Positions 7,292 through 19,956 of a stretch of DNA of 24,909 nt are shown one piece after another. A model generated the notes under the pieces. That model saw nothing but the letters and a program-made list of their open reading frames with translations, was not told the DNA's origin and searched no databases. The DNA lies in the IMG/VR virus record IMGVR_UViG_3300021469_000007, positions 1 through 24,909 of that record; one strand, 5' to 3'. Position 1 is the first letter of the stretch. Every line of letters starts with the position of its first letter. A program made the position numbers and the translations under genes. The DNA comes from a virus.

Positions 7292-9133
7292 CTAGACAGT
7301 TGCCACTTGTGTCTTTATTTCAACTACTGCCTTATTATCAACAACTGCGATACCGAATGTGTGAGATCCAGTTAACTTGTTCTTTCTTGCGGCGGTGTCT
7401 TTTTCCATTTCAAGTAGTAATTCACGTTTCGGTGCAAATACTAAAGCGTTTTTATGTATTAGGTATGCAGAGCGATAATGGTTTGTGCCATCATGCTCAG
7501 GTAGATAATTACTTATAACTATATTGCATCCTAAGAAGTCACGGATTACACCGGTTCTAACTATGTCTCCACGAACATAAGTTAAAGCTTGAGTTCCGGC
7601 AATGTCTTTAAGTAGATATCCATACATCATTGGATCAATCACTAATATCAAATCACCGACTTCTACATCTTTACCTTGAGACATTAATGTCTGTATAGCT
7701 TCGGCAACCCAATCAGCGTCAAATCCAGCTGTCCCTGACTTATCAAGTTCAGGTACATTAGTATCAGCTAGAAATGTATCAAGTATATGTTTGTCAACGG
7801 CTCTACGTGCAGCTTTAACTGCGGCTGTTTCTATTTTCTCTATTATTTCTGGGCCGAGTTTTTCAACGTCAGCATATGGAATTGTAGTTGTAAATGCAGC
7901 TTCTTTGAGTGTAGTTGCTACTGTACCGTAAAGACCGGTTTTAGCGGTTAAAGTGTCGCCGACATTTGTTAGGATATCCATGTCAAAATCTTTTACATAG
8001 GGAACTGTAACTGTGTCTCCACGTTCTCCTACAAGTATTGGTGACCTCATTACAAAATCAGTTATTTTTGCGGCTGGTGCGAGAGCTTGACCGACGGGTG
8101 GCATGTATTGTTCTATATATACTTTCCATGAAACTACTTTTCCGCTTTCAGTTTTAAGGCTCTTTATCTCTTTGATTAATTTTTCCATATGGATATTTCT
8201 TTTTTCACTTCTCTCTTCTGTTTCAACTATACCTTTTGGTTCAATATTTTCATCCATTGTTATTTCCTCCTCCTTAACTTTTTTACCCCTAATTTTAAGG
8301 TCATTCTCAACCTGTGGGGCTTCAGGTTGAGTTCCCGTTTCGTCAATGGATTTGCTTTCATTTTCATGTTTTTCCATTGTTTTTACTTGTGTTTCAATTT
8401 CAGTGTTTTCTTTGGGATTTTCATTTTCTTCTTTACATGTCAATTCACTTTCAATTTTCTCCATCAAACTTGTCACCTCTTTTATAAAATGCTCATGAAC
8501 AAATTTCTCAAAAGGCTCAATACGTGTTAAAGGAATACCGGGGAAAGCGTCACGTGTTAAGAGAGCTAACCCTGAGAATATTAATCCTTCACATTTTCTT
8601 CCTTCATCATTCCAAGTGAAAGTTCTACATATAGCTTCAATACTTACATGTATTATTTCTTCATTATCAATCATGTCAATAATTCTTTTTCCTTCGAATT
8701 CAGCTTTATTATCTATGAAAATTAGACATTCAACTGAATTATCTTCATATTCAGCGTCAATTATTTCTACATCTTCAAGTTTGAATTCATGATTTATATT
8801 TACAGGTTTACCGACAAGTGTTCTAGCTGCTCGCATTAACTCGTCTTCAGTATATTTATTTAAGTTAAGTGAAACTATTGGAAAAACAGCCCAAACCTTA
8901 TAGTATTTTCCATCTTCACGTTTTATATGTCTTAAATAGCCAGCCCAATCGAAACGTTCTTTTCGTCTAAGTTTTCCACGTTGACTATCAAGACTTTTAG
9001 TGTCGTCTAGACCGTATTTGTTAAGCCATGCATAGTATAGTCGTCGGCCTTTATCTTCACCGTATTGTTGTATGAACATTCTAAGTATTCTTTGAAAATC
9101 AGGATGTATAGGTTCACTAATTTTTTCACTCAT
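7292..9133 (-). CDS. Prohead protease - scaffold - major capsid protein fusion
   Basis: About 613 residues from ATG 9133 (AGGTGA upstream, overlapping the portal end). Domains in order: a short helical N-terminus (HPDFQRILRMFIQQYG); an HK97/herpes-type serine protease with VGKPVNINHE (likely catalytic His) and IIHVSIEAICR (likely catalytic Ser), ending in LALLTRDAFPGIPLTRIEP; a Glu/Lys-rich scaffold-like linker (about 215-335); then an HK97-fold capsid protein with the phrases VGERGDTVTVPYVKDFD, TIPYADVEKLG, DADWVAEAIQTLMSQG, LILVIDPMMYGYLL and a C-terminal HTFGIAVVDNKAVVEIKTQ. The single gene replaces three usual ones. Proteolysis by its own protease, or the internal starts noted separately, could release the capsid protein. 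Confidence 0.88.
   Translation of the reverse strand: MSEKISEPIHPDFQRILRMFIQQYGEDKGRRLYYAWLNKYGLDDTKSLDSQRGKLRRKERFDWAGYLRHIKREDGKYYKVWAVFPIVSLNLNKYTEDELMRAARTLVGKPVNINHEFKLEDVEIIDAEYEDNSVECLIFIDNKAEFEGKRIIDMIDNEEIIHVSIEAICRTFTWNDEGRKCEGLIFSGLALLTRDAFPGIPLTRIEPFEKFVHEHFIKEVTSLMEKIESELTCKEENENPKENTEIETQVKTMEKHENESKSIDETGTQPEAPQVENDLKIRGKKVKEEEITMDENIEPKGIVETEERSEKRNIHMEKLIKEIKSLKTESGKVVSWKVYIEQYMPPVGQALAPAAKITDFVMRSPILVGERGDTVTVPYVKDFDMDILTNVGDTLTAKTGLYGTVATTLKEAAFTTTIPYADVEKLGPEIIEKIETAAVKAARRAVDKHILDTFLADTNVPELDKSGTAGFDADWVAEAIQTLMSQGKDVEVGDLILVIDPMMYGYLLKDIAGTQALTYVRGDIVRTGVIRDFLGCNIVISNYLPEHDGTNHYRSAYLIHKNALVFAPKRELLLEMEKDTAARKNKLTGSHTFGIAVVDNKAVVEIKTQVATV
8255..8275 (-). promoter_or_regulatory. 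Strong internal ribosome binding site inside the protease-capsid fusion
   Basis: On the minus strand, AAGGAGGAGG (8275-8266) lies 8 nt before an in-frame ATG at 8257 (MDENIEPKG...). It is one of the strongest SD matches in the window. It would start a 321-residue protein: about 60 residues of linker plus the complete HK97-like capsid domain. The Glu codons used here are GAG GAG, whereas this AT-rich genome mostly uses GAA. A second, weaker in-frame candidate is GAGGTG before ATG 8464, which would add the scaffold region. Confidence 0.55.
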
Positions 9134-10262
9134 TTTTTTCACCTTTAAAATCTTCTTCTTCAATCGGTAACCCGAAAGTTTTAAGCCACTGTAAAACTGT
9201 GGCTTTACCAATGTAACCGGCTTTAGTTAAAACATCAATTAATTTTCCTAGTTCATCAACATTAAAATCTTCAAGCTTAGTTTTCGGGAAACCCCAATTT
9301 AATCGTGGAACTTCACGTAAACCCTCAACTTCAATGATAGGCCGGAAAATCTCGGCTTCAACTTTACGTTTAACATAACGTTGAATCCCAGCCACATGAC
9401 GCTCAACAGCTTCAAGCATAACGTTAGCCGAAGCCTCAGTTGCATTACGTAAATAAGATAGTAATGGAGCGCCTAAGCCCTCCCAAATCTGAATATTCAA
9501 GTAATCAATGAAATCTTTATAGGGAAGACGGGGATCAATATCGATAACTTTAGGCTCAATTTCACCAGTTATAGCTATGTCTTCGTCTGGCTGTTTGTCA
9601 CGTAAAATAGTAAGTAAGTTTTCACGGGCAGCTTTATTTGGAGCTATCCACACTATTGGAGGTCTAGCATGTCGTTCAAGAATTTTCTTCATGTCTTCAT
9701 TCCATTTCTTCTTTATTTCAAGATAAGAAAAAACAGGTTTAATTATACTGATTCCATAGGCTGATGATCCCAACGGGGAATGTTTAAAATGAACTATTTG
9801 ATTAGGTTTAAAACTAATTTTTTTACCGTAACTAGATTGTTTATATCCTAGTAGTTTTCCATGTTCAGTTCTAACAACCTTCATAGTTGTAGGTGGTAAA
9901 AGTTGTAGGCCGATGATTTTTCGGCCCTTAAAAATCTTCTCAACATAAGCGTCACCGTAAACAAGCATGTTTCTAACAATATTTAAGAGTAGTTGATCCA
10001 TGCCGACTTGTTCAGCGAAATTATCAACTATTTCTTTACTTTTTTCATCTTCACATGTAGTGTAATATCCATTTCCAGCAACCATTTCAGCAAGCATGTC
10101 AATAGCTTGTCTAACTATGGGATCACTTTTATAGTAATCTTCAAAATCAGTTAAATTAGGCTCACTAGGCTCACCTATACGGCCCCAAAAACTAGGGACA
10201 ACTATTCCTTTTGCTTTTTCTCTAATGAAAAAATTTTTTAATCTTTCAAAAATACTTGACAA
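9126..10262 (-). CDS. Portal protein
   Basis: A 378-residue portal of the HK97/SPP1-like type, start TTG 10262 with GAGGG 7 nt upstream. Recognisable elements are the N-terminal DPIVRQAIDMLAEMVAGNGYY, the wing segment MLVYGDAYVEKIF with LQLLPPTTMKVVRT, KPNQIVHFKHSPLGSSAYGISII, and the long clip/stem helix region with VMLEAVERHVAGIQRYVKRKVEAEI. Twelve copies form the ring through which DNA enters the head. It lies after the terminase and overlaps the protease-capsid gene by 8 nt, a classic packaging order. At 378 residues it is compact, lacking a long C-terminal extension. Confidence 0.92.
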   Translation of the reverse strand: MSSIFERLKNFFIREKAKGIVVPSFWGRIGEPSEPNLTDFEDYYKSDPIVRQAIDMLAEMVAGNGYYTTCEDEKSKEIVDNFAEQVGMDQLLLNIVRNMLVYGDAYVEKIFKGRKIIGLQLLPPTTMKVVRTEHGKLLGYKQSSYGKKISFKPNQIVHFKHSPLGSSAYGISIIKPVFSYLEIKKKWNEDMKKILERHARPPIVWIAPNKAARENLLTILRDKQPDEDIAITGEIEPKVIDIDPRLPYKDFIDYLNIQIWEGLGAPLLSYLRNATEASANVMLEAVERHVAGIQRYVKRKVEAEIFRPIIEVEGLREVPRLNWGFPKTKLEDFNVDELGKLIDVLTKAGYIGKATVLQWLKTFGLPIEEEDFKGEKNE

Positions 10263-10362: not shown

Positions 10363-11751
10363 TTATTTACTAACATAAAGAAAAATCTTAGGAACCCTTA
10401 TCACATCTGGAGAAGGCCCAGTAAAAGCGGCGTAAACAGCAAGTGCAAAAGCCCACAACATATCATCATGTGTTCCTTCAGGATGATAAAATCTTATTCG
10501 TCCTTGTTTAGTCATCTCATATTTTTCAACATTTAATTCAGCTATAAAATCACGGTCATAAGGAAACTTAACTTTCCCCTCTTTCATTTTCTGTTTAAGT
10601 AAACTCATTATCTCCTCTTTTCTCGGTAAACTGAGCATGACGCCTTCAATATTTCCTAGTCCAATGTTTTTCATATCTTCAACGATATATTCACCAACAC
10701 CAGTTTGATCCACATGAACACTGTTGACACTACTCCACCTGTCACAAAGAACTTTTACATATCCTATTACAGATGCATAACTGGTTCCAAGTGGAAATCT
10801 TTTTAAATGAATATGTCTAACTAAATCATCTTTTTTATCAACAGCACTTATAACTGAATAATCATGTTTTTTACCGAGATCCAATCCAATATAAATTTCA
10901 CGGCCCGAAATCTTATCTTCAAACTCAACATAATCAAGGTCATGGTCTATACACTTAGCTATAAGGCTTTGAGGCAAATAACTTGTTTCATCTTCAACCC
11001 ATTCAGCCTCCATTTCACGTATCCAACGATTTTGGTCTCCCTCATACTGTTTCCGTAATTTCTCAAACATGTTTCTTTTAATCGGGCCATTTGGCTCTAA
11101 TGCTTCACGCCAAGTAATGTGACTTTTAACATAATCTTGAAAAGCCGGCTCATAATGAACTGCATAAAAAACACTATCAATATTAAACGGTGTTGACGCA
11201 CCTATGAATTTACCATATTTTCTAGTTATAAGTGTAAAAAGTATTGCGTCAAACATTTCCTTATCATTAGGAGTAAAATTCATTTCATCCCAAAAAATAA
11301 TGTCAAAAGTCGGCCCACGTATAGTTTCAGGATTATTTGGAAAACACTTTGTAGTTGAACCATTAGTTATTTCAATAATTGTTTTTCTCTTCTTATAATA
11401 CCATTCTTTAGGTAATTTTTCTAGGAAATTATTTATTATCTTGATGATCCGTTTACTTTGACGGAAAGACGGTCCAATAATCGCAATGTTACTGTTCGGA
11501 TACTTTAACATGTACCATAGTAGAAAAGCTGAAACCGTCCAAGTTTTACCACTTTGACGACACCAACGAATAATTGTAAATTGATTTTCCAAAATTTTAT
11601 AAATTAAGTCACGTTGATAACTAAACGGCTTGAAACCTAAAAATTTCTCGAAAAATTCACATGGATCATCAGGAACTCTTATTTTAGAATATTTCTTTTT
11701 TAACATATCTTCAATCTTTTTTGTTAAACGTTCAAGTTCACTTTTACTCAT
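10363..11751 (-). CDS. Terminase large subunit (packaging ATPase-nuclease)
   Basis: A 462-residue protein from ATG 11751 with AGGTGA upstream; the GTG at 11760 lies in the SD. ATPase motifs: Walker A WCRQSGKT (about 63-70) and Walker B IIFWDEM (about 152-157), followed by the coupling phrase GASTP. The C-terminal RNase H-like nuclease shows its three acidic positions in GLDLGKKHD, HVDQTGVGE and THDDMLWAFAL. It pumps and cuts viral DNA during head filling. It starts 5 nt after the DruA-like gene ends. No recognisable small subunit gene is adjacent. The complete motif set indicates an active enzyme. Confidence 0.96.
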   Translation of the reverse strand: MSKSELERLTKKIEDMLKKKYSKIRVPDDPCEFFEKFLGFKPFSYQRDLIYKILENQFTIIRWCRQSGKTWTVSAFLLWYMLKYPNSNIAIIGPSFRQSKRIIKIINNFLEKLPKEWYYKKRKTIIEITNGSTTKCFPNNPETIRGPTFDIIFWDEMNFTPNDKEMFDAILFTLITRKYGKFIGASTPFNIDSVFYAVHYEPAFQDYVKSHITWREALEPNGPIKRNMFEKLRKQYEGDQNRWIREMEAEWVEDETSYLPQSLIAKCIDHDLDYVEFEDKISGREIYIGLDLGKKHDYSVISAVDKKDDLVRHIHLKRFPLGTSYASVIGYVKVLCDRWSSVNSVHVDQTGVGEYIVEDMKNIGLGNIEGVMLSLPRKEEIMSLLKQKMKEGKVKFPYDRDFIAELNVEKYEMTKQGRIRFYHPEGTHDDMLWAFALAVYAAFTGPSPDVIRVPKIFLYVSK

Positions 11752-11756
11752 AAATT

Positions 11757-12458
11757 TCACCTTAAAAGTTCACGACGCCAATAACGATGGAGAGGTTTCA
11801 CATAAATCTGTTTAGGGCCATCAACAGCTTTTACTGTCTTAATATTTCCATTTTTAAAATAAGGCAAACCAGATGATCCTTTACTTACACTTTTAAGCGA
11901 AAATCCACGTGTATAACCTAGAAATATCCAATTAGCTGCTTTAAATATTGTTCCTTTATATTTTCTATGAACAAACGAGACAAGTAAAACAAGTTTATCA
12001 TTATACTTTTCTTTCCAATCATGTTTAACTTGACTATAAAAAAGACTTAAAGCTTTACTAGGAATGTTTTTAGGAGCTTTAGAAGTGAAACATACACGTA
12101 GTAAACATGAAACTTTATTGAAGTTTCTTTTTCTTTGTTCTTTATTCCAGCCGATGAAGGTTTTTAGTGGCTTTGAATCACGTAAAACATAACTACCAAC
12201 AATGAAGGCGCCGACAATTATATTATCATTGAAAATTAAATATCTAATTTGTCGGCCTACAAAATTTGTTGACGGTTTATAACTATGATGATCCAGAATT
12301 ATTTTTCTAACAAGACTTTTTTCTCTACTTGTTCTACAAAGTTTAATTTTTACTTCTCCAAGTTTTAATCTATTGTGAAATGCGGTGGGCCGGATTTGCA
12401 CCGGCGCCGTCAAACTGGGTGTTTGACGCTCTACTTGGTCTAAACTACCACCGCTCAA
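11757..12458 (-). CDS. DruA-like (DUF4338) protein
   Basis: About 233 residues from TTG 12458, chosen because GGTGAT lies a few nt upstream and no ATG, GTG or TTG occurs in frame between the tRNA-like segment and the conserved core. Core motifs fit DUF4338, the family of DruA from Druantia defence: LDHHSYKPSTNFVGRQIRYLI, then FIGWNKEQRKRN, SKALSLF, HDWKEKYNDKLVLLVSFV and GTIFKAANWIFLGYTRG. The last phrase is also reminiscent of Mom-type DNA modification enzymes. Role is unknown: anti-restriction DNA modification or inter-virus defence are both possible. It precedes the terminase by 5 nt and so is probably co-expressed late. The first 25 or so residues are encoded by the tRNA-like gene. Confidence 0.8.
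   Translation of the reverse strand: MSGGSLDQVERQTPSLTAPVQIRPTAFHNRLKLGEVKIKLCRTSREKSLVRKIILDHHSYKPSTNFVGRQIRYLIFNDNIIVGAFIVGSYVLRDSKPLKTFIGWNKEQRKRNFNKVSCLLRVCFTSKAPKNIPSKALSLFYSQVKHDWKEKYNDKLVLLVSFVHRKYKGTIFKAANWIFLGYTRGFSLKSVSKGSSGLPYFKNGNIKTVKAVDGPKQIYVKPLHRYWRRELLR
12381..12454 (-). tRNA. Degenerate tRNA-Gly(CCC)-like gene
   Basis: The minus strand folds as a cloverleaf: acceptor stem GCGGTGG with CCACCGC (7 of 7 pairs), anticodon stem TCAAA with TTTGA (5 of 5), T stem GCCGG with CCGGC (5 of 5), 4-nt variable loop, weak D stem GTTT with GAGC, and discriminator A. The anticodon loop CACCCAG puts CCC at 34-36. G1-C72, C2-G71, G3-C70 and A73 fit archaeal tRNA-Gly. However, normally invariant bases differ: A at 33 in place of U, TGCAAAT in place of TTCAAAT in the T loop, and AAG in the D loop where GG is expected. 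No CCA is encoded. It may be decayed, a tRNA mimic, or a former attachment site. Confidence 0.7.
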
Positions 12459-12835
12459 AAAAATCACCAAAAATAAATAAAGTGGAGTTGAACTCCCAAT
12501 TTATTTAAAAATGAATGTGGATTTTATTCCCAAGTTATTTATAAATATGGTGGGATCAAATCCCACGGGAATAAACATGTTTGTGATAAACACCTTTAAA
12601 ATAATCATAGTTATATAACAACCGTTATAAAAACTAATGATTGTTAGACAAATCACTGTTAGACTAAAATGTTTTAGGGGCCTATAATTCTCATAATCAT
12701 TATTCCCATAATCATAGTCACTATAATTATAATTAACTATAACTTTGGTGTATAATAATATACCAATATGTCATTTTTTGGAATATTATATATAGTGAAA
12801 GAATAATTACTGGTGATATCATCAGTTACTGGTGG
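12459..12835. other. Non-coding, repeat-rich region, candidate control region or origin
   Basis: No convincing gene occurs here. It contains three 34-nt repeats (12481-12582), a nested inverted repeat (TTTATTCCC at 12523-12531 with GGGAATAAA at 12567-12575, enclosing GTGGGAT and ATCCCAC), two TGTTAGAC copies 15 nt apart (12642 and 12657), two ATAATCATAGT copies (about 12600 and 12709), very AT-rich stretches around 12721-12800, and one ATATCATCA (12816-12824), the motif clustered at 19528-19956. TATA-like boxes at 12500-12510 and 12535-12548 could serve the DruA-terminase operon. It has the ingredients of a promoter/operator or replication start. Confidence 0.6.
12481..12582 (-). repeat. Three 34-nt direct repeats with internal dyads
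   Basis: Read on the minus strand, units cover about 12582-12549, 12548-12515 and 12514-12481. The second and third align without gaps: ATTT, A or T, TAAATAA, then TTGGGA..T..A..TCCAC. Each has a dyad of type GGGA-N5/7-TCCC (GGAGTT-G-AACTCC at 12484-12496; GTGGGAT-CAA-ATCCCAC at 12550-12566). Two units also hold a TATA-like TTTATAAATA or TTTAAATAA. Such spacing, about three helical turns, suits an iterated protein-binding site beside a promoter. Confidence 0.65.
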
Positions 12836-13114: not shown

Positions 13115-13283
13115 TTTTTTCACCTAATTCATTTATTTTAAGTTGTTGTCTTACTTTTTCCACTTCTACTTGCCAATTATAATTGAAGGCTTCCCAAATT
13201 TTGATTTGAGCTTCTGGTCTAAATTGGGGGTTGAAAAATTTTTCAAATATTTTTAGTCCTTTAGGTTTTCTAATTCGCTTCAT
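13092..13283 (-). CDS. Small basic protein, unknown
   Basis: A 63-residue protein from ATG 13283 with GGTGA upstream; the start overlaps the end of the transglutaminase-like gene, and its own end overlaps the next gene, so three genes are coupled. The N-terminus is basic (MKRIRKPKGLKIFEKFF), followed by an amphipathic helix around PEAQIKIWEAFNYNWQVEVEKVRQQLKI. No family recognised. It could bind nucleic acid or be a partner of its neighbours. Confidence 0.58.
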   Translation of the reverse strand: MKRIRKPKGLKIFEKFFNPQFRPEAQIKIWEAFNYNWQVEVEKVRQQLKINELGEKNEDERYI

Positions 13284-13953
13284 AATCTTCACCTTGACTT
13301 TGACTTATTATTTTCTCATAATGCATGGCTTTTTTGGAATCTTCAATGTAAACAGTTTGATTGAACCATACGAAGCCATCGTAAATTATACCGTTAAATC
13401 CTGTGGTTGCAGTTTCATGTGAAATTATAGGTAGTGGTTTAGATGGAGCTGTGGTTTCAATTATATGTTTTTTATTTTTATATGTTGTTTCAACCCATGC
13501 GTGTAAGCCAATGAATTTATTTTTTTTCTGATTTAAAATGGCTCCTAAGGTTACAAAACAGTTTATTTTCTTGAAAATGAGTATTGAGGCAAGTAAAAGA
13601 CTTGTATCAATACATATACCATATTTTATTGTTAAAGTTTCACTAGGTTTAAGCCATCCATAATTAAAATGTTTGTCAAATCGGTATTTTTCACTGTAAA
13701 CACGGAAAATTTTTATGTGACGTTCAGTTGCCGCTTTACCTTGCCAATCATGAGGGAAACGTATTTTATTTGTAACAAATTTTGTTGCTTCTTCAATAAT
13801 CTTGTCACGTTCACGAACTGTAATTCGAGCTGCCACTCTAATAACAAGTGGATTCTCACTCTCAATAAAGTCATAGATATATCTTGGCTCTCCTGTTAAA
13901 CCGAAATTTACAATAACTGGTTTAAGGTCACGTGAATATTTTCGAAGCGTCAA
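13270..13953 (-). CDS. Transglutaminase-like cysteine peptidase, possible endolysin
   Basis: A 227-residue protein from TTG 13953 (GGGTGA 7 nt upstream). The transglutaminase-like core is visible: KYGICIDTSLLLASIL with catalytic Cys at about 114, IGLHAWVET with His at about 151, and HIIETTAP supplying the third acidic position (Glu at about 166, where Asp is more usual). No signal peptide. Viral endoisopeptidases PeiW and PeiP, which open methanogen cell walls, belong to this superfamily, though their wall-binding repeats are absent here. The next genes encode small membrane proteins and a membrane protease, so a role in host lysis is plausible; virion maturation is the alternative. Confidence 0.78.
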   Translation of the reverse strand: MTLRKYSRDLKPVIVNFGLTGEPRYIYDFIESENPLVIRVAARITVRERDKIIEEATKFVTNKIRFPHDWQGKAATERHIKIFRVYSEKYRFDKHFNYGWLKPSETLTIKYGICIDTSLLLASILIFKKINCFVTLGAILNQKKNKFIGLHAWVETTYKNKKHIIETTAPSKPLPIISHETATTGFNGIIYDGFVWFNQTVYIEDSKKAMHYEKIISQSQGEDYEAN

Positions 13954-14192: not shown

Positions 14193-14414
14193 TTACTCCT
14201 TCTTTTCAGTGAATAAGAAACTTATCACAGCAAGCCATGGACTAAAATATGTTGCAAGCTCCTTCAAAAGCTCCAATGAATCAACACCATGAGTTAAGCC
14301 ATAGAAGCCAATTACTATTCCACCGCCAATGTAAGCAAAAGTAAAAGTTAATGCAGCTACACCTCTTACACTTGCCTTACTAAACCAATCGCTAACTTTA
14401 CTAAAAACTTTCAT
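14193..14414 (-). CDS. Small membrane protein, holin-like
   Basis: A 73-residue protein from ATG 14414; the start overlaps the stop of the metalloprotease gene, with GAGGTGG upstream. It has an amphipathic basic N-terminus (MKVFSKVSDWFSKASVRG) followed by a helix ALTFTFAYIGGGIVIGFYGL, a polar turn, and a second helix SPWLAVISFLF ending in a charged tail TEKKE. Two helices with charged ends is a common holin layout. A second small membrane protein directly follows, so the pair may act as holin and antiholin. Confidence 0.58.
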   Translation of the reverse strand: MKVFSKVSDWFSKASVRGVAALTFTFAYIGGGIVIGFYGLTHGVDSLELLKELATYFSPWLAVISFLFTEKKE

Positions 14415-14995
14415 TTAAACCACCTCTCCCTAAGTTTTCGAACATACAAATACGTGAAAAACGTAAATGACAAAATGGTTCCAAAAGTCGAAATATACAT
14501 CAAATAATCATATATCCAATCAAACCCAGCGAAAGCCAACATCTCACAGAAACCATAAACACCCTGCGCCACAGCATTAGTCATCAAAGCAAACTTATCA
14601 TCAATATCCTGCCCAGGACGTAAAGCTAAAAGTAAGTAAAGAATAGTAACTGATAATCCACCCATCAAAGCCACAACAATAATCTTCCAATAACCACCCA
14701 CCGGTAAAACAGTGGGAAAAACAGCAGCACCCGATGGTAATAACTTAATATAACCATCACCACCAAACATGATTAAAACAAGTAAATGTCCAAATTCATG
14801 AACTGGCAATGTCATCGCCCAAAAAATCAAGTAACAATAGACAAAAATTAGCATATTAAAAATTGTAGGCCGACGAGCAGCAAGTAAAATTAATTTTTCT
14901 CTACTGAAAACATCATGTTTTATAGTTTTTAACTTATAAATAACTAAACTTATAACACAGGCTATCCAAATATGAAGCAAAATAAAATCAACCAT
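14411..14995 (-). CDS. Membrane metalloprotease, HExxH (M50/S2P-like)
   Basis: About 194 residues from ATG 14995, chosen because GGTGAT lies 4 nt upstream; ATG 15007 is upstream but unsupported. It has five to six hydrophobic segments. The zinc motif HEFGH (about residues 66-70) lies at the end of a membrane segment, with GGDGYIKLLPSGAAVFP after it and ALMGGLSVTILYLLLAL further on, as in M50B-type intramembrane proteases. It would cut proteins inside or at the membrane. First in a minus operon with two holin-like genes and a transglutaminase-like peptidase. Substrate unknown: a holin, a host membrane regulator or an envelope protein are possible. Confidence 0.72.
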   Translation of the reverse strand: MVDFILLHIWIACVISLVIYKLKTIKHDVFSREKLILLAARRPTIFNMLIFVYCYLIFWAMTLPVHEFGHLLVLIMFGGDGYIKLLPSGAAVFPTVLPVGGYWKIIVVALMGGLSVTILYLLLALRPGQDIDDKFALMTNAVAQGVYGFCEMLAFAGFDWIYDYLMYISTFGTILSFTFFTYLYVRKLRERWFK

Positions 14996-15000
14996 GAATA

Positions 15001-15027
15001 TCACCATAAAAGAGGGGCGTTAATCAT
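15001..15027 (-). CDS. Possible 8-residue leader peptide
   Basis: On the minus strand, AGGAGG lies 8 nt before ATG 15027, which starts an eight-codon frame MINAPLLW and ends with TGA at 15001-15003. That TGA is part of the GGTGAT ribosome site of the metalloprotease gene, so translation of the leader could control the next start. The leader's own SD falls in the 3' arm of a hairpin. Short frames occur by chance, so this is tentative. Confidence 0.35.
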   Translation of the reverse strand: MINAPLLW

Positions 15028-16241: not shown

Positions 16242-16418
16242 ATGGTTGTTAAATGTAGTAAATGTGAAAAATGTCGTTTCTTCGTCAACAAATATCAATA
16301 TTGCACAGTTCTAGATTGTCACCCAGATCCACATATGAAATGTCATAGATTTGAACCTAAAAACAATAATGAAAGAGAATTACTCATACTAGCAAAAAGT
16401 TACGGGTGGAAAAAATGA
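16242..16418 (+). CDS. Small cysteine-rich zinc-binding protein
   Basis: A 58-residue protein from ATG 16242, AGGTG upstream. It has seven Cys and three His in the first 40 residues (CSKCEKCRFF, YCTVLDCHPDPHMKCH), suited to zinc or an iron-sulfur cluster. The stop overlaps the start of the radical-SAM-like gene (ATGA), so the two are coupled; it might be an accessory protein of that enzyme. Confidence 0.65.
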   Translation: MVVKCSKCEKCRFFVNKYQYCTVLDCHPDPHMKCHRFEPKNNNERELLILAKSYGWKK

Positions 16419-17113
16419 CGAGAATGTTTAAATTCATAACGAAAACATGGAACCCAATTGTCGGCTGTTACCACAATTGTTACGGTAAATGTTGGGCCAT
16501 GATAATGGCTAAAAGACGTAAAAATCAATGTAAACTTTGCTATCAATTCAAACCACATCTACATCCTGAGAGATTAAAACCCTTTAAACCACGTAAACCA
16601 ACATTAATATTCACAGTCTCAATGGGTGACTTATTCGGCCAATGGGTTCCAAGCGATTGGATACATGCTGTATTAGACGTTATGAATAAAAGTAACAAGA
16701 AAGTGACGTTTTTCCTAGAAACAAAAAATCCACGAGGATACATAGACTATACTAAATATTTCCCTGAAAAAATAATTCTATCAACAACCATTGAAACAAA
16801 TCGCAATTACAAAGTCTCACATGCACCACCAACAATTGAGCGATATTCAATAATGAAAAAATTTTTCAGAAACTTTAAAAAACACATTAGCATCGAACCA
16901 ATACTAGATTTTGACCACGATGAACTTGTAAAATGGATCTGCCACATAAACCCTGAAAACTCATTCTATGACATTTCAATTGGATACGACAATTATAACA
17001 ACAAGTTACCTGAACCTTCATTAAAGAAAACTTTAAAACTAAAAACAACACTTGAATCACTAGGATTCAAAGTTGAAATAAAAAGTTTACGAAAAGCATG
17101 GTGGGAGAAATAA
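16415..17113 (+). CDS. Gp37/Gp68-like (DUF5131) radical-SAM-type protein
   Basis: A 232-residue protein from ATG 16415 (GGGTGG upstream; GTG 16406 rejected). It matches phage Gp37/Gp68 family features: KTWNPIVGCYHNCYGKCWAM at the start, PTLIFTVSMGDLFGQWVP, TFFLETKNPRGY, IILSTTIETNRNY and HISIEPILDFD. The spacing C-x3-C-x3-C (residues 18, 22 and 26) is the radical SAM 4Fe-4S signature. The reaction is unknown; members are proposed to act on nucleotides or DNA. It is coupled to the cysteine-rich gene upstream and followed by three small genes. Confidence 0.8.
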   Translation: MTRMFKFITKTWNPIVGCYHNCYGKCWAMIMAKRRKNQCKLCYQFKPHLHPERLKPFKPRKPTLIFTVSMGDLFGQWVPSDWIHAVLDVMNKSNKKVTFFLETKNPRGYIDYTKYFPEKIILSTTIETNRNYKVSHAPPTIERYSIMKKFFRNFKKHISIEPILDFDHDELVKWICHINPENSFYDISIGYDNYNNKLPEPSLKKTLKLKTTLESLGFKVEIKSLRKAWWEK

Positions 17114-18375: not shown

Positions 18376-18819
18376 TCATATCGTAACACCATATTGAATT
18401 ACAATAACACCTTGTTTTCTCATGAATTTTACAACTTCAGTATTATCTTCAAAATAAACGTTAATACCCAATTCACGTATTTTCTTCACTTTTTCTTTGG
18501 CAACATATTCATACCAACTTTGAAGTTTCATGTTTCTCCAATCTTTTAAACAAAGAACATGCAACTCAAATTCAGGATAAAATTTTTTACACCACTTTTC
18601 TGTTATTTCTTTTACTCTTTCCGGCCTTCCGGTAATAATTACACCTTCATCATCTTCATGAAGAAATAAACGAGGATTTAACAATGGTTTTCTATTTCTA
18701 TAATACCACATTTCAACAATTTTTCTAGTTTTTTCATCTTTTATTCTACCTATCCATGCCAACAATGCTTTATCAACATCACATAAAACACCATCCAAAT
18801 CAAAACCAATCCTCAACAT
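18376..18819 (-). CDS. HAD-family phosphatase
   Basis: A 147-residue HAD hydrolase from ATG 18819. Motif I is FDLDGVLCDVD (nucleophile Asp and acid Asp), motif II IITGRPE, and motif IV YFEDN. The small helical cap lies between motifs I and II. Size and motifs resemble 5'-nucleotidases and polynucleotide phosphatases, so nucleotide salvage or DNA/RNA end repair are likely roles. Its SD (GGAGGTGG) overlaps the last codons of the Cas4-like gene, so the two are translationally coupled. Confidence 0.82.
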   Translation of the reverse strand: MLRIGFDLDGVLCDVDKALLAWIGRIKDEKTRKIVEMWYYRNRKPLLNPRLFLHEDDEGVIITGRPERVKEITEKWCKKFYPEFELHVLCLKDWRNMKLQSWYEYVAKEKVKKIRELGINVYFEDNTEVVKFMRKQGVIVIQYGVTI

Positions 18820-19556
18820 CCACCACCTCCAACTCTTTCACATTCTTCCCTGAATTCACAGGCTATGAAACATTGCCATTTCATTTCTTCATTCATCTTG
18901 GCTTCAGGTTCAGGTAACTCTTTAGCAAGTAAGTGATAATGAAGTCTAACTATACGGTCAAGAAGAAAAATAAATTTTTCAAAATCATATTTTACGAGAA
19001 ATGTTTTTGTTTGGAGATCCATTTTAGAAACATAAACTATGGCTCCGAGTTTTATGTTTAGAGCGTGAAGATATAAGATTAATTGGTCTATATGTTCTTT
19101 ATATGGTAATTTAACTTCTTCCCATTTCCATTTTTTCTTATTAAATTTACTGAAAGACTTTATACTTTTAACTTCAATAACGATTTTTTCATTATAACCT
19201 TGAATTATTATGATGTTGTCGAAACGGCCTTTAATTTTTAAATCTTTAAATGATAGTGTAAATTCACCTTCATTTTCAACAAGCTTAATGTTTTCACTTT
19301 TCTTAAGAACATTTTTAATAAACTCATGAATAATATTACCTGCATGAAAGATCCTGAGTTTTTCTTTGCTTATTTTCTTCGGCCCCAAAGTATAAAGATA
19401 ATATAGCCGTCTAAGGCAATACGGGATCATAGATGGATAATAAACACCGATTTTAAGTTCTTTTGTTTCACGTTCTAGATATTCGTCTATGGCTTGATTT
19501 ATAATATCGTTTAAATCAACTGTTAATATATCATCACTTTTTTGTTGTGTTATCAT
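18813..19556 (-). CDS. Cas4-like Fe-S exonuclease (PD-(D/E)xK)
   Basis: A 247-residue RecB-like nuclease from ATG 19556. Features in order: PYC (first cluster Cys, about 47), a conserved His in AGNIIHEF (about 77), GRFDN (Asp about 113), VIEVKS (Glu about 128 and Lys about 130), HIDQLILYLHAL (Gln and Tyr), then three Cys in CFIACEFREEC (about 229, 233 and 239). These give a complete nuclease site and a 4Fe-4S cluster. Viral Cas4 homologues act in DNA end processing or recombination. No CRISPR genes are nearby. The Gly4-Cys tail is encoded by the SD and start of the HAD gene. Confidence 0.88.
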   Translation of the reverse strand: MITQQKSDDILTVDLNDIINQAIDEYLERETKELKIGVYYPSMIPYCLRRLYYLYTLGPKKISKEKLRIFHAGNIIHEFIKNVLKKSENIKLVENEGEFTLSFKDLKIKGRFDNIIIIQGYNEKIVIEVKSIKSFSKFNKKKWKWEEVKLPYKEHIDQLILYLHALNIKLGAIVYVSKMDLQTKTFLVKYDFEKFIFLLDRIVRLHYHLLAKELPEPEAKMNEEMKWQCFIACEFREECERVGGGGC

Positions 19557-19956
19557 CACTATATCATCACCTTCTTTCTACGGGTATATCATCACGCTTT
19601 GATTGAAGTGATGATATTATATCATCATTTTTCAGAATAGGCCAGCTTGTTAATTTCAAGTATATTGTATTATTTTTTCTTTCAAGAGTTATTTTTCCCT
19701 CTAAAATTAACTGTTCAATTATTTTGTCGGGGTTTGTTATTCCGTTTGTTATACATGTTTTTATGAATGTTTGTTGTGTTATTCCTTCGGGTTGATATTT
19801 GTCTATTAGGTTGATGATCCAGCGTTTTAGACTTAAAGTATCTATATCTGTGGGGAGTGATGATATAATATCATCATTTTCTTGAGTGGGTGATGATATT
19901 TGTTTGGGTTTTAAGTGATGGTTTAATGATGATATTTGTGTTTGTTGTGATGATAT
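19528..19956. repeat. Iteron-like cluster of TGATGATAT motifs inside genes
   Basis: Ten close matches to [AG]TGATGATAT or its complement lie here: 19528-19537, 19550-19559 (one mismatch), 19561-19570, 19586-19595, 19608-19617, 19619-19628, 19857-19866, 19868-19877, 19890-19899 and 19947-19956, with an ATGATGATAT at 19926-19935 as well. Two pairs meet head-to-head with one base between (19608-19628 and 19857-19877), giving perfect 21-base palindromes. They span the 3' end of the AAA+ gene and the 5' end of the nuclease gene, in more than one reading frame. Candidate replication origin or protein-loading site. Confidence 0.75.

What the first reader, a model, noticed from the sequence alone, without database searches (positions are those of the whole stretch)
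11757..12458. Druantia DruA-family (DUF4338) gene carried by a virus beside its terminase
Core motifs GRQIRYL, FIGWN, DW..KY and GTIFKAANWIFLGYTRG match the family. DruA is known as a defence component, but its biochemistry is obscure. Here it stands alone, 5 nt before the packaging terminase, which fits a role on viral DNA at packaging, for example a Mom-like base modification against restriction, rather than defence.
Basis: partly seen in the sequence, partly recalled or inferred. Interest (0 to 1): 0.7.

Follow-up and report, generated by a model that had tools for sequence, protein, structure and literature searches.

The report
Viral Mom-like gene with odd tRNA
A virus of deep-branching archaea (Bathyarchaeia) carries, just before its DNA-packaging gene, a relative of the phage Mu enzyme that disguises viral DNA, preceded by a tRNA for glycine that looks unfit for protein synthesis and might feed that enzyme.

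Summary
The gene is real. The protein scores above the Pfam cut-offs of both DruA and Mom, and profile-profile comparison links its viral subfamily to the Mom family (97.4%, E 1e-11). No Druantia partner was found on the contig. Terminase kin place the host in Bathyarchaeia. In 60 of 103 related terminase loci the terminase neighbours an ABC ATPase-GNAT gene, in 7 a Dam-like methylase; the window alone has the Mom-like gene and lacks both. A Mom-like gene also sits two genes before the terminase of halovirus HRTV-4. A DNA-base-modifying, anti-restriction role is therefore likely, though unproven. The tRNA keeps all 21 stem pairs through eight compensatory double changes and keeps the glycine identity bases, but lacks U33, G18G19 and U55, so it was probably kept for something other than decoding. 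The most novel reading is a dedicated glycyl donor for the modification. It rests on one genome: no other Mom locus examined has such a tRNA.

The parts
11757..12347 (-). Mom/DruA-like gene, likely true coding region (ATT start at 12347, stop TGA 11759-11757), about 196 aa
   Evidence: PF14236 55 bits, PF25680 27.4 bits; PHROG 1384; hhalign to Mom family 97.4%, E 1.4e-11; GGAG 12 nt before ATT
11757..12470 (-). mechanical open frame as listed; its first ~30 codons lie in the tRNA gene and are not conserved
12381..12454 (-). tRNA-Gly(CCC)-like gene, complete cloverleaf, no encoded CCA; lacks U33, G18G19 and U55
   Evidence: ARAGORN, Rfam tRNA 45.7 bits, no ARAGORN call in 200 shuffled windows, comparison with host tRNA-Gly
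12356..12359 (-). ribosome-binding site GGAG, 12 nt before the ATT start
10363..11760 (-). large terminase (TerL); likely start ATG at 11751, or GTG at 11760 overlapping the mom-like stop
   Evidence: PF03237 75.6 bits; Bathyarchaeal relatives
9126..10262 (-). portal protein, directly after TerL; no ABC-GNAT gene in between
   Evidence: PF04860 and PF06074
12836..13123 (-). small gene in the position of the small gene that abuts TerL in relative L111; function not established
   Evidence: position only; sequence similarity weak
13270..13953 (-). transglutaminase-like gene, synteny marker shared with L111 and L119
   Evidence: 40% identity, E 2e-53 to L111:6659-7309
12484..12566 (-). AT-rich stretch with T-arm-like hairpins just upstream of the tRNA; function unknown
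   Evidence: hairpins at 12566-12550 and 12496-12484; repeats

Best explanation
The gene encodes a Mom-superfamily (GNAT-like) enzyme that adds a small group to bases of the virus's own DNA, most likely adenine N6, so that host restriction enzymes do not cut it. It was acquired as a cassette (tRNA plus gene) between a small gene and TerL, and is probably translated from the same message as TerL, so the modification would be made late, before or while genomes are packaged. Shown here: family membership and homology to Mom, gene position and spacing, no Druantia partner found on the contig, recurrence of other modification-type genes at the terminase of relatives. Inferred: enzymatic activity, target base, timing and anti-restriction purpose. 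Not settled: the donor of the added group and the job of the tRNA.
For: Pfam DruA and Mom both above cut-off; PHROG Mom-like; hhalign of the 19-row DruA-like viral family against 8 Mom proteins (Mu, PX29, LP65, HGTV-1 and others) gives 97.4%, E 1.4e-11 over 148 columns; the only histidine invariant in the Mom alignment (H58 of the Mu frame) aligns with the invariant histidine of the HHSY motif, and GVVYQASNF with GTIFKAANW. In 103 related terminase loci with enough sequence, 60 have an ABC ATPase-GNAT gene within 3 kb of TerL, usually abutting its 3' end, and 7 a D12/Dam-type adenine methylase; only the window has a Mom-like gene, and it has neither of the others (domains). The window's TerL lies in a supported clade where its nearest rows all carry ABC-GNAT. 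HRTV-4 gp19, which passes the Mom cut-off (32.6 bits), lies two genes before TerL gp21. Relatives L001 and L005 lie near a DNA methylase gene.
Against: No biochemical data for any DruA-type member are at hand. The Mom Pfam score is only just over its cut-off. The window has Phe where nearly all relatives have Tyr (position 142), and the Glu invariant among Mom proteins (E108) is not kept, so the chemistry may differ. DruA homologues also occur in defence loci and beside IS66-type transposases (L153). The 35 of 103 terminase loci without a modification gene show the slot is not obligatory, and many loci are close kin, so counts are not independent.
Confidence: 0.68

Rival explanations
1. The tRNA-Gly-like RNA is a dedicated, non-ribosomal glycyl donor: host GlyRS charges it and the Mom-like enzyme uses the glycyl group to build the modification (Mom's known product on adenine has the composition of a glycine residue). 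It would work like the staphylococcal cell-wall tRNA-Gly that feeds FemX.
For: tRNA and gene are neighbours in one inserted cassette. The tRNA keeps G1C2G3, CCC and A73 as in host tRNA-Gly but lacks G18G19, U33 and U55, which 28 distinct Bathyarchaeal tRNA-Gly nearly all keep. All 21 stem pairs are kept, with eight changed on both sides in the virus row, so the fold was selected, not decaying. GGG is the rarest glycine codon in the window, 21 of 418. Non-proteinogenic S. aureus tRNA-Gly also lack G18G19 (PMC4052509). The donor has only been proposed, as an acyl-CoA such as glycyl-CoA (PMC7824862).
Against: Seen in one genome only. None of the other Mom/DruA-like loci searched, Mu, HRTV-4 and HGTV-1 among them, has a tRNA-Gly beside the gene. 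Pattern searches for kin of this tRNA found none. No paper in the library describes Mom using glycyl-tRNA. The conserved Gly-specific acceptor end may only reflect descent.
Confidence: 0.2
2. The tRNA-like RNA is a processing or regulatory element: RNase P and tRNase Z cut it out and define the 5' end of the mom-terL message, limiting or timing expression (Mu mom is also under tight translational control, by Com).
For: The tRNA ends 33 nt before the likely start codon; the start is the weak ATT with its own GGAG; perfect acceptor and T stems, which processing enzymes need, are kept while decoding features are lost.
Against: No transcript data; does not explain why glycine identity bases are kept; no such arrangement in relatives.
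Confidence: 0.35
3. The tRNA is an ordinary passenger: a decoding tRNA, perhaps altered to resist host anticodon nucleases, or a relic of integration at a host tRNA-Gly gene.
For: Viruses often carry tRNAs and many archaeal proviruses integrate at tRNA genes (PMC11705971); the sequence clearly descends from archaeal tRNA-Gly.
Against: Loss of U33, G18G19 and U55 together; GGG codons are rare; an integration relic should match a host tRNA closely, but this one is strongly diverged with compensatory changes; no integrase was recognised in the window genes scanned.
Confidence: 0.3
4. The protein is a defence factor against superinfecting viruses (a Druantia-like function carried by the virus) or a transposon passenger.
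For: Family name and Pfam match to DruA; IS66-linked homologue in a Bathyarchaeal genome.
Against: No Druantia partner found in the window; PADLOC DruA1 only 14.5 bits; no transposase beside it; the gene's profile match begins at position 51 of PF14236, without the N-terminal domain seen in L153.
Confidence: 0.12

Closest known systems
Mom of phage Mu (PF25680; N6-carbamoylmethyl-adenine)
   Same: Homologous over ~150 columns; shared His and G-x-x-[YF]-x-A-x-N-[WF]-x-x-x-G motif; short stand-alone viral gene
   Different: Invariant Glu of Mom alignment not kept; Phe instead of Tyr in the GxxY motif; no Com gene recognised; next to TerL and a tRNA-Gly; archaeal host
DruA / DUF4338 (PF14236), Druantia and IS66-linked proteins
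   Same: Highest Pfam score, 55.1 bits; 22 of 23 members of the aligned viral subfamily match it
   Different: Lacks the N-terminal region; no Druantia partners found in the window
ABC ATPase-GNAT gene beside TerL in Bathyarchaeal tailed viruses
   Same: Recurs at the same packaging locus; GNAT domain; a GNAT coupled to an ABC ATPase has been predicted to modify bases (PMC7824862)
   Different: Different architecture, usually downstream of TerL; absent from the window; that it is the published family was not tested
Non-proteinogenic staphylococcal tRNA-Gly (FemXAB donors)
   Same: Glycine identity kept, G18G19 lost (PMC4052509)
   Different: Bacterial, cell-wall pathway; here U33 is lost too; no evidence of charging

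Membership tests
Mom family (PF25680 / PHROG 1384) | Score above the curated cut-off | tested here: met
   27.4 vs 27.1 bits, borderline; PHROG 1384 50 bits; hhalign 97.4%
Mom family (PF25680 / PHROG 1384) | Conserved histidine and G-x-x-Y-x-A-x-N motif | tested here: inconclusive
   His and motif aligned, but Tyr is Phe
Mom family (PF25680 / PHROG 1384) | Glu invariant among the eight Mom proteins aligned (E108 of the Mu frame) | tested here: not met
   Not kept in window or its subfamily; for this reason it is called Mom-like, not Mom
Mom family (PF25680 / PHROG 1384) | Produces N6-carbamoylmethyl-adenine | not testable with these tools
   Needs mass spectrometry
DruA / DUF4338 (PF14236) | Score above the curated cut-off | tested here: met
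   55.1 vs 27 bits
Druantia defence system | Partner genes, DruE-type helicase among them | tested here: not met
   None of the ten further window proteins scanned matches a Druantia model; DruA1 model itself only 14.5 bits
GNAT fold | Three-dimensional structure | not tested
tRNA-Gly | Cloverleaf, CCC anticodon, glycine acceptor end | tested here: met
Decoding tRNA | U33, G18G19, U55 | tested here: not met
   A33, no GG in D-loop, G at 55; host tRNA-Gly keep them

The most novel reading that the evidence does not exclude
A virus encodes its own non-ribosomal tRNA-Gly as the glycyl donor for a Mom-like DNA-modifying enzyme: DNA modification that draws on aminoacyl-tRNA. It would also suggest a donor for Mom's adenine modification in phage Mu.
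Probability: 0.18. Interest if true: 0.92.

Novelty: new variant of a known kind. Interest (0 to 1): 0.62.

Why it matters
It ties the obscure DruA family to Mom by test rather than name, and adds a Bathyarchaeal tailed virus to the users of Mom-like genes. It also exposes a recurring slot for modification-type genes at the terminase of these viruses. The odd tRNA-Gly makes an open question, where Mom gets its glycine-like group, testable with a simple labelling experiment, also in the E. coli/Mu system.

Tried and rejected
Search for kin of the tRNA in viral contigs and 256 Bathyarchaeal genomes by pattern: none. Search for tRNAs at other Mom/DruA loci by ARAGORN, Rfam and an own covariance model: none adjacent; phiSA_BS2 has a tRNA-Arg about 3.4 kb away. 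At other terminase loci only unrelated or edge tRNAs. Mom-like protein in Bathyarchaeal genomes: one hit of 256, an IS66-linked DUF4338. I considered that the tRNA is a false positive (rejected: no call in 200 shuffles, compensatory pairs) and that the extended anticodon stem seen in folding is special (rejected: host tRNAs fold alike). The Rfam gathering scan of the whole window missed the tRNA; the sensitive mode found it. The Mu Mom structure-function paper (Karambelkar 2020) and Iyer 2013 are not held.

Full report
Observation. The gene lies on the minus strand. The mechanical open frame is 12470-11757 and holds every motif quoted. It passes the Pfam cut-offs for DruA (55.1 bits) and, narrowly, Mom (27.4 vs 27.1), and matches PHROG 1384, 'Mom-like DNA modification protein'. 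ARAGORN finds a tRNA-Gly(CCC) at 12454-12381, inside the first part of that frame; the sensitive Rfam search gives it 45.7 bits, and 200 shuffled windows give no tRNA call. The coding region therefore starts after the tRNA. The best start is ATT at 12347, with GGAG 12 nt upstream, the spacing seen in other genes of this genome; this start is inferred. The stop is 5 nt before the terminase ATG at 11751.

Virus and host. The window is the whole IMG/VR record of 24,909 bases, a linear fragment, with terminase, portal and capsid genes. Terminase relatives with organism names are nearly all from Bathyarchaeota genomes; the rest are viral contigs, so the host is most likely a Bathyarchaeon (inference from kinship).

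What the protein is. Relatives at 27-34% identity come from viral contigs, several of them large phages by gene content, and from the halovirus HRTV-4. 22 of 23 aligned members match DruA and two match Mom. A profile of 19 of them, without HRTV-4, aligned to a profile of eight Mom proteins with 97.4% probability, E 1.4e-11, over 148 columns. The histidine invariant among Mom proteins aligns with the invariant histidine of HHSY, and Mom's GVVYQASNF with GTIFKAANW. Differences: Phe for Tyr in that motif, and Mom's invariant Glu is not kept. From established knowledge, Mu Mom converts adenine to N6-carbamoylmethyl-adenine and blocks restriction.

Where it sits. In L111, the relative with the same transglutaminase-like gene (40% identity, E 2e-53), a small gene overlaps the terminase start. 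In the window about 1.1 kb, with the tRNA and the Mom-like gene, lies between the small gene and the terminase. The small genes themselves are too short for firm homology.

A pattern at the terminase. I tallied genes within 3 kb of the terminase in 103 related loci with enough sequence: 60 have an ABC ATPase-GNAT gene, usually abutting the terminase's 3' end, 7 a D12/Dam-type adenine methylase, the window alone a Mom-like gene, and 35 none of these (domain calls). The window has neither of the other two. In the terminase tree the window falls in a supported clade whose members mostly carry ABC-GNAT, and its nearest rows all do, though the basal forks are open. A replacement of one modification gene by another is consistent with this but not proved. 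In HRTV-4 the Mom-like gp19 is two genes before the terminase. Published work predicts a base-modifying role for a GNAT coupled to an ABC ATPase (PMC7824862); that ours is the same family was not tested. Of two papers on Bathyarchaeal and archaeal tailed viruses that I searched by term, one mentions stand-alone methylases, and neither uses the word acetyltransferase.

The tRNA. Against 28 distinct Bathyarchaeal tRNA-Gly and in an alignment with nine of them, the viral copy keeps G1C2G3, the CCC anticodon and A73, but has A33 for U33, no G18G19, and G for U55. All 21 stem pairs are intact, eight of them changed on both sides relative to the common host pair, so the fold appears selected rather than decaying. 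U33 and the G18G19-U55/C56 contacts are normally needed for decoding (established knowledge), and GGG is the rarest glycine codon in the window (21 of 418). Non-proteinogenic S. aureus tRNA-Gly also lack G18G19 (PMC4052509). It is therefore plausible that this RNA is made for something other than translation.

Mechanism. Most likely: a Mom-like enzyme modifies viral DNA late in infection, before or during packaging, protecting it from restriction (0.68). For the tRNA three readings remain: processing or regulatory element, passenger, or glycyl donor for the modification. The donor reading fits the glycine-like composition of Mom's known product and the unsolved donor, but stands on one genome. 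No Mom/DruA locus searched elsewhere has a neighbouring tRNA-Gly, no kin of the tRNA was found, and no paper found in the library supports it.

Verdict.

Noticed in passing
L010:7355-8800, L012:7377-8903, L013:7278-8810 and some 57 further loci: ABC ATPase-GNAT fusion gene next to TerL in most Bathyarchaeal tailed viruses of this terminase clade; the word acetyltransferase does not occur in the two papers searched on these viruses.
   Followed up: partly
window 12484-12566: Three T-arm-like hairpins in an AT-rich stretch just upstream of the tRNA (GTGGGATTTGATCCCAC, GGGAATAAAATCC, GGAGTTCAACTCC).
   Followed up: partly
L153:1150-2052: DUF4338 (DruA-type) gene with an N-terminal domain directly before an IS66-type transposase gene in a Bathyarchaeal genome.
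   Followed up: partly
window 16406-17113: DUF5131 protein (70.7 bits), also matching PADLOC candidate-defence models PDC-M41B and PDC-M30B.
   Followed up: no
window 18813-19559 and 18376-18819: Cas4-like nuclease and a polynucleotide-kinase-like protein, adjacent and overlapping.
   Followed up: no
window 14411-15007: Membrane protein with an HEFGH motif, like site-2 (M50) metalloproteases; no Pfam match.
   Followed up: no
window 7292-9211: Capsid protein of 639 aa whose N-terminal half looks like a separate domain, perhaps a fused maturation protease as in other tailed viruses.
   Followed up: no
L043:9513-9589: tRNA-Ala(TGC) about 130 nt downstream of TerL in a Bathyarchaeal genome.
   Followed up: no
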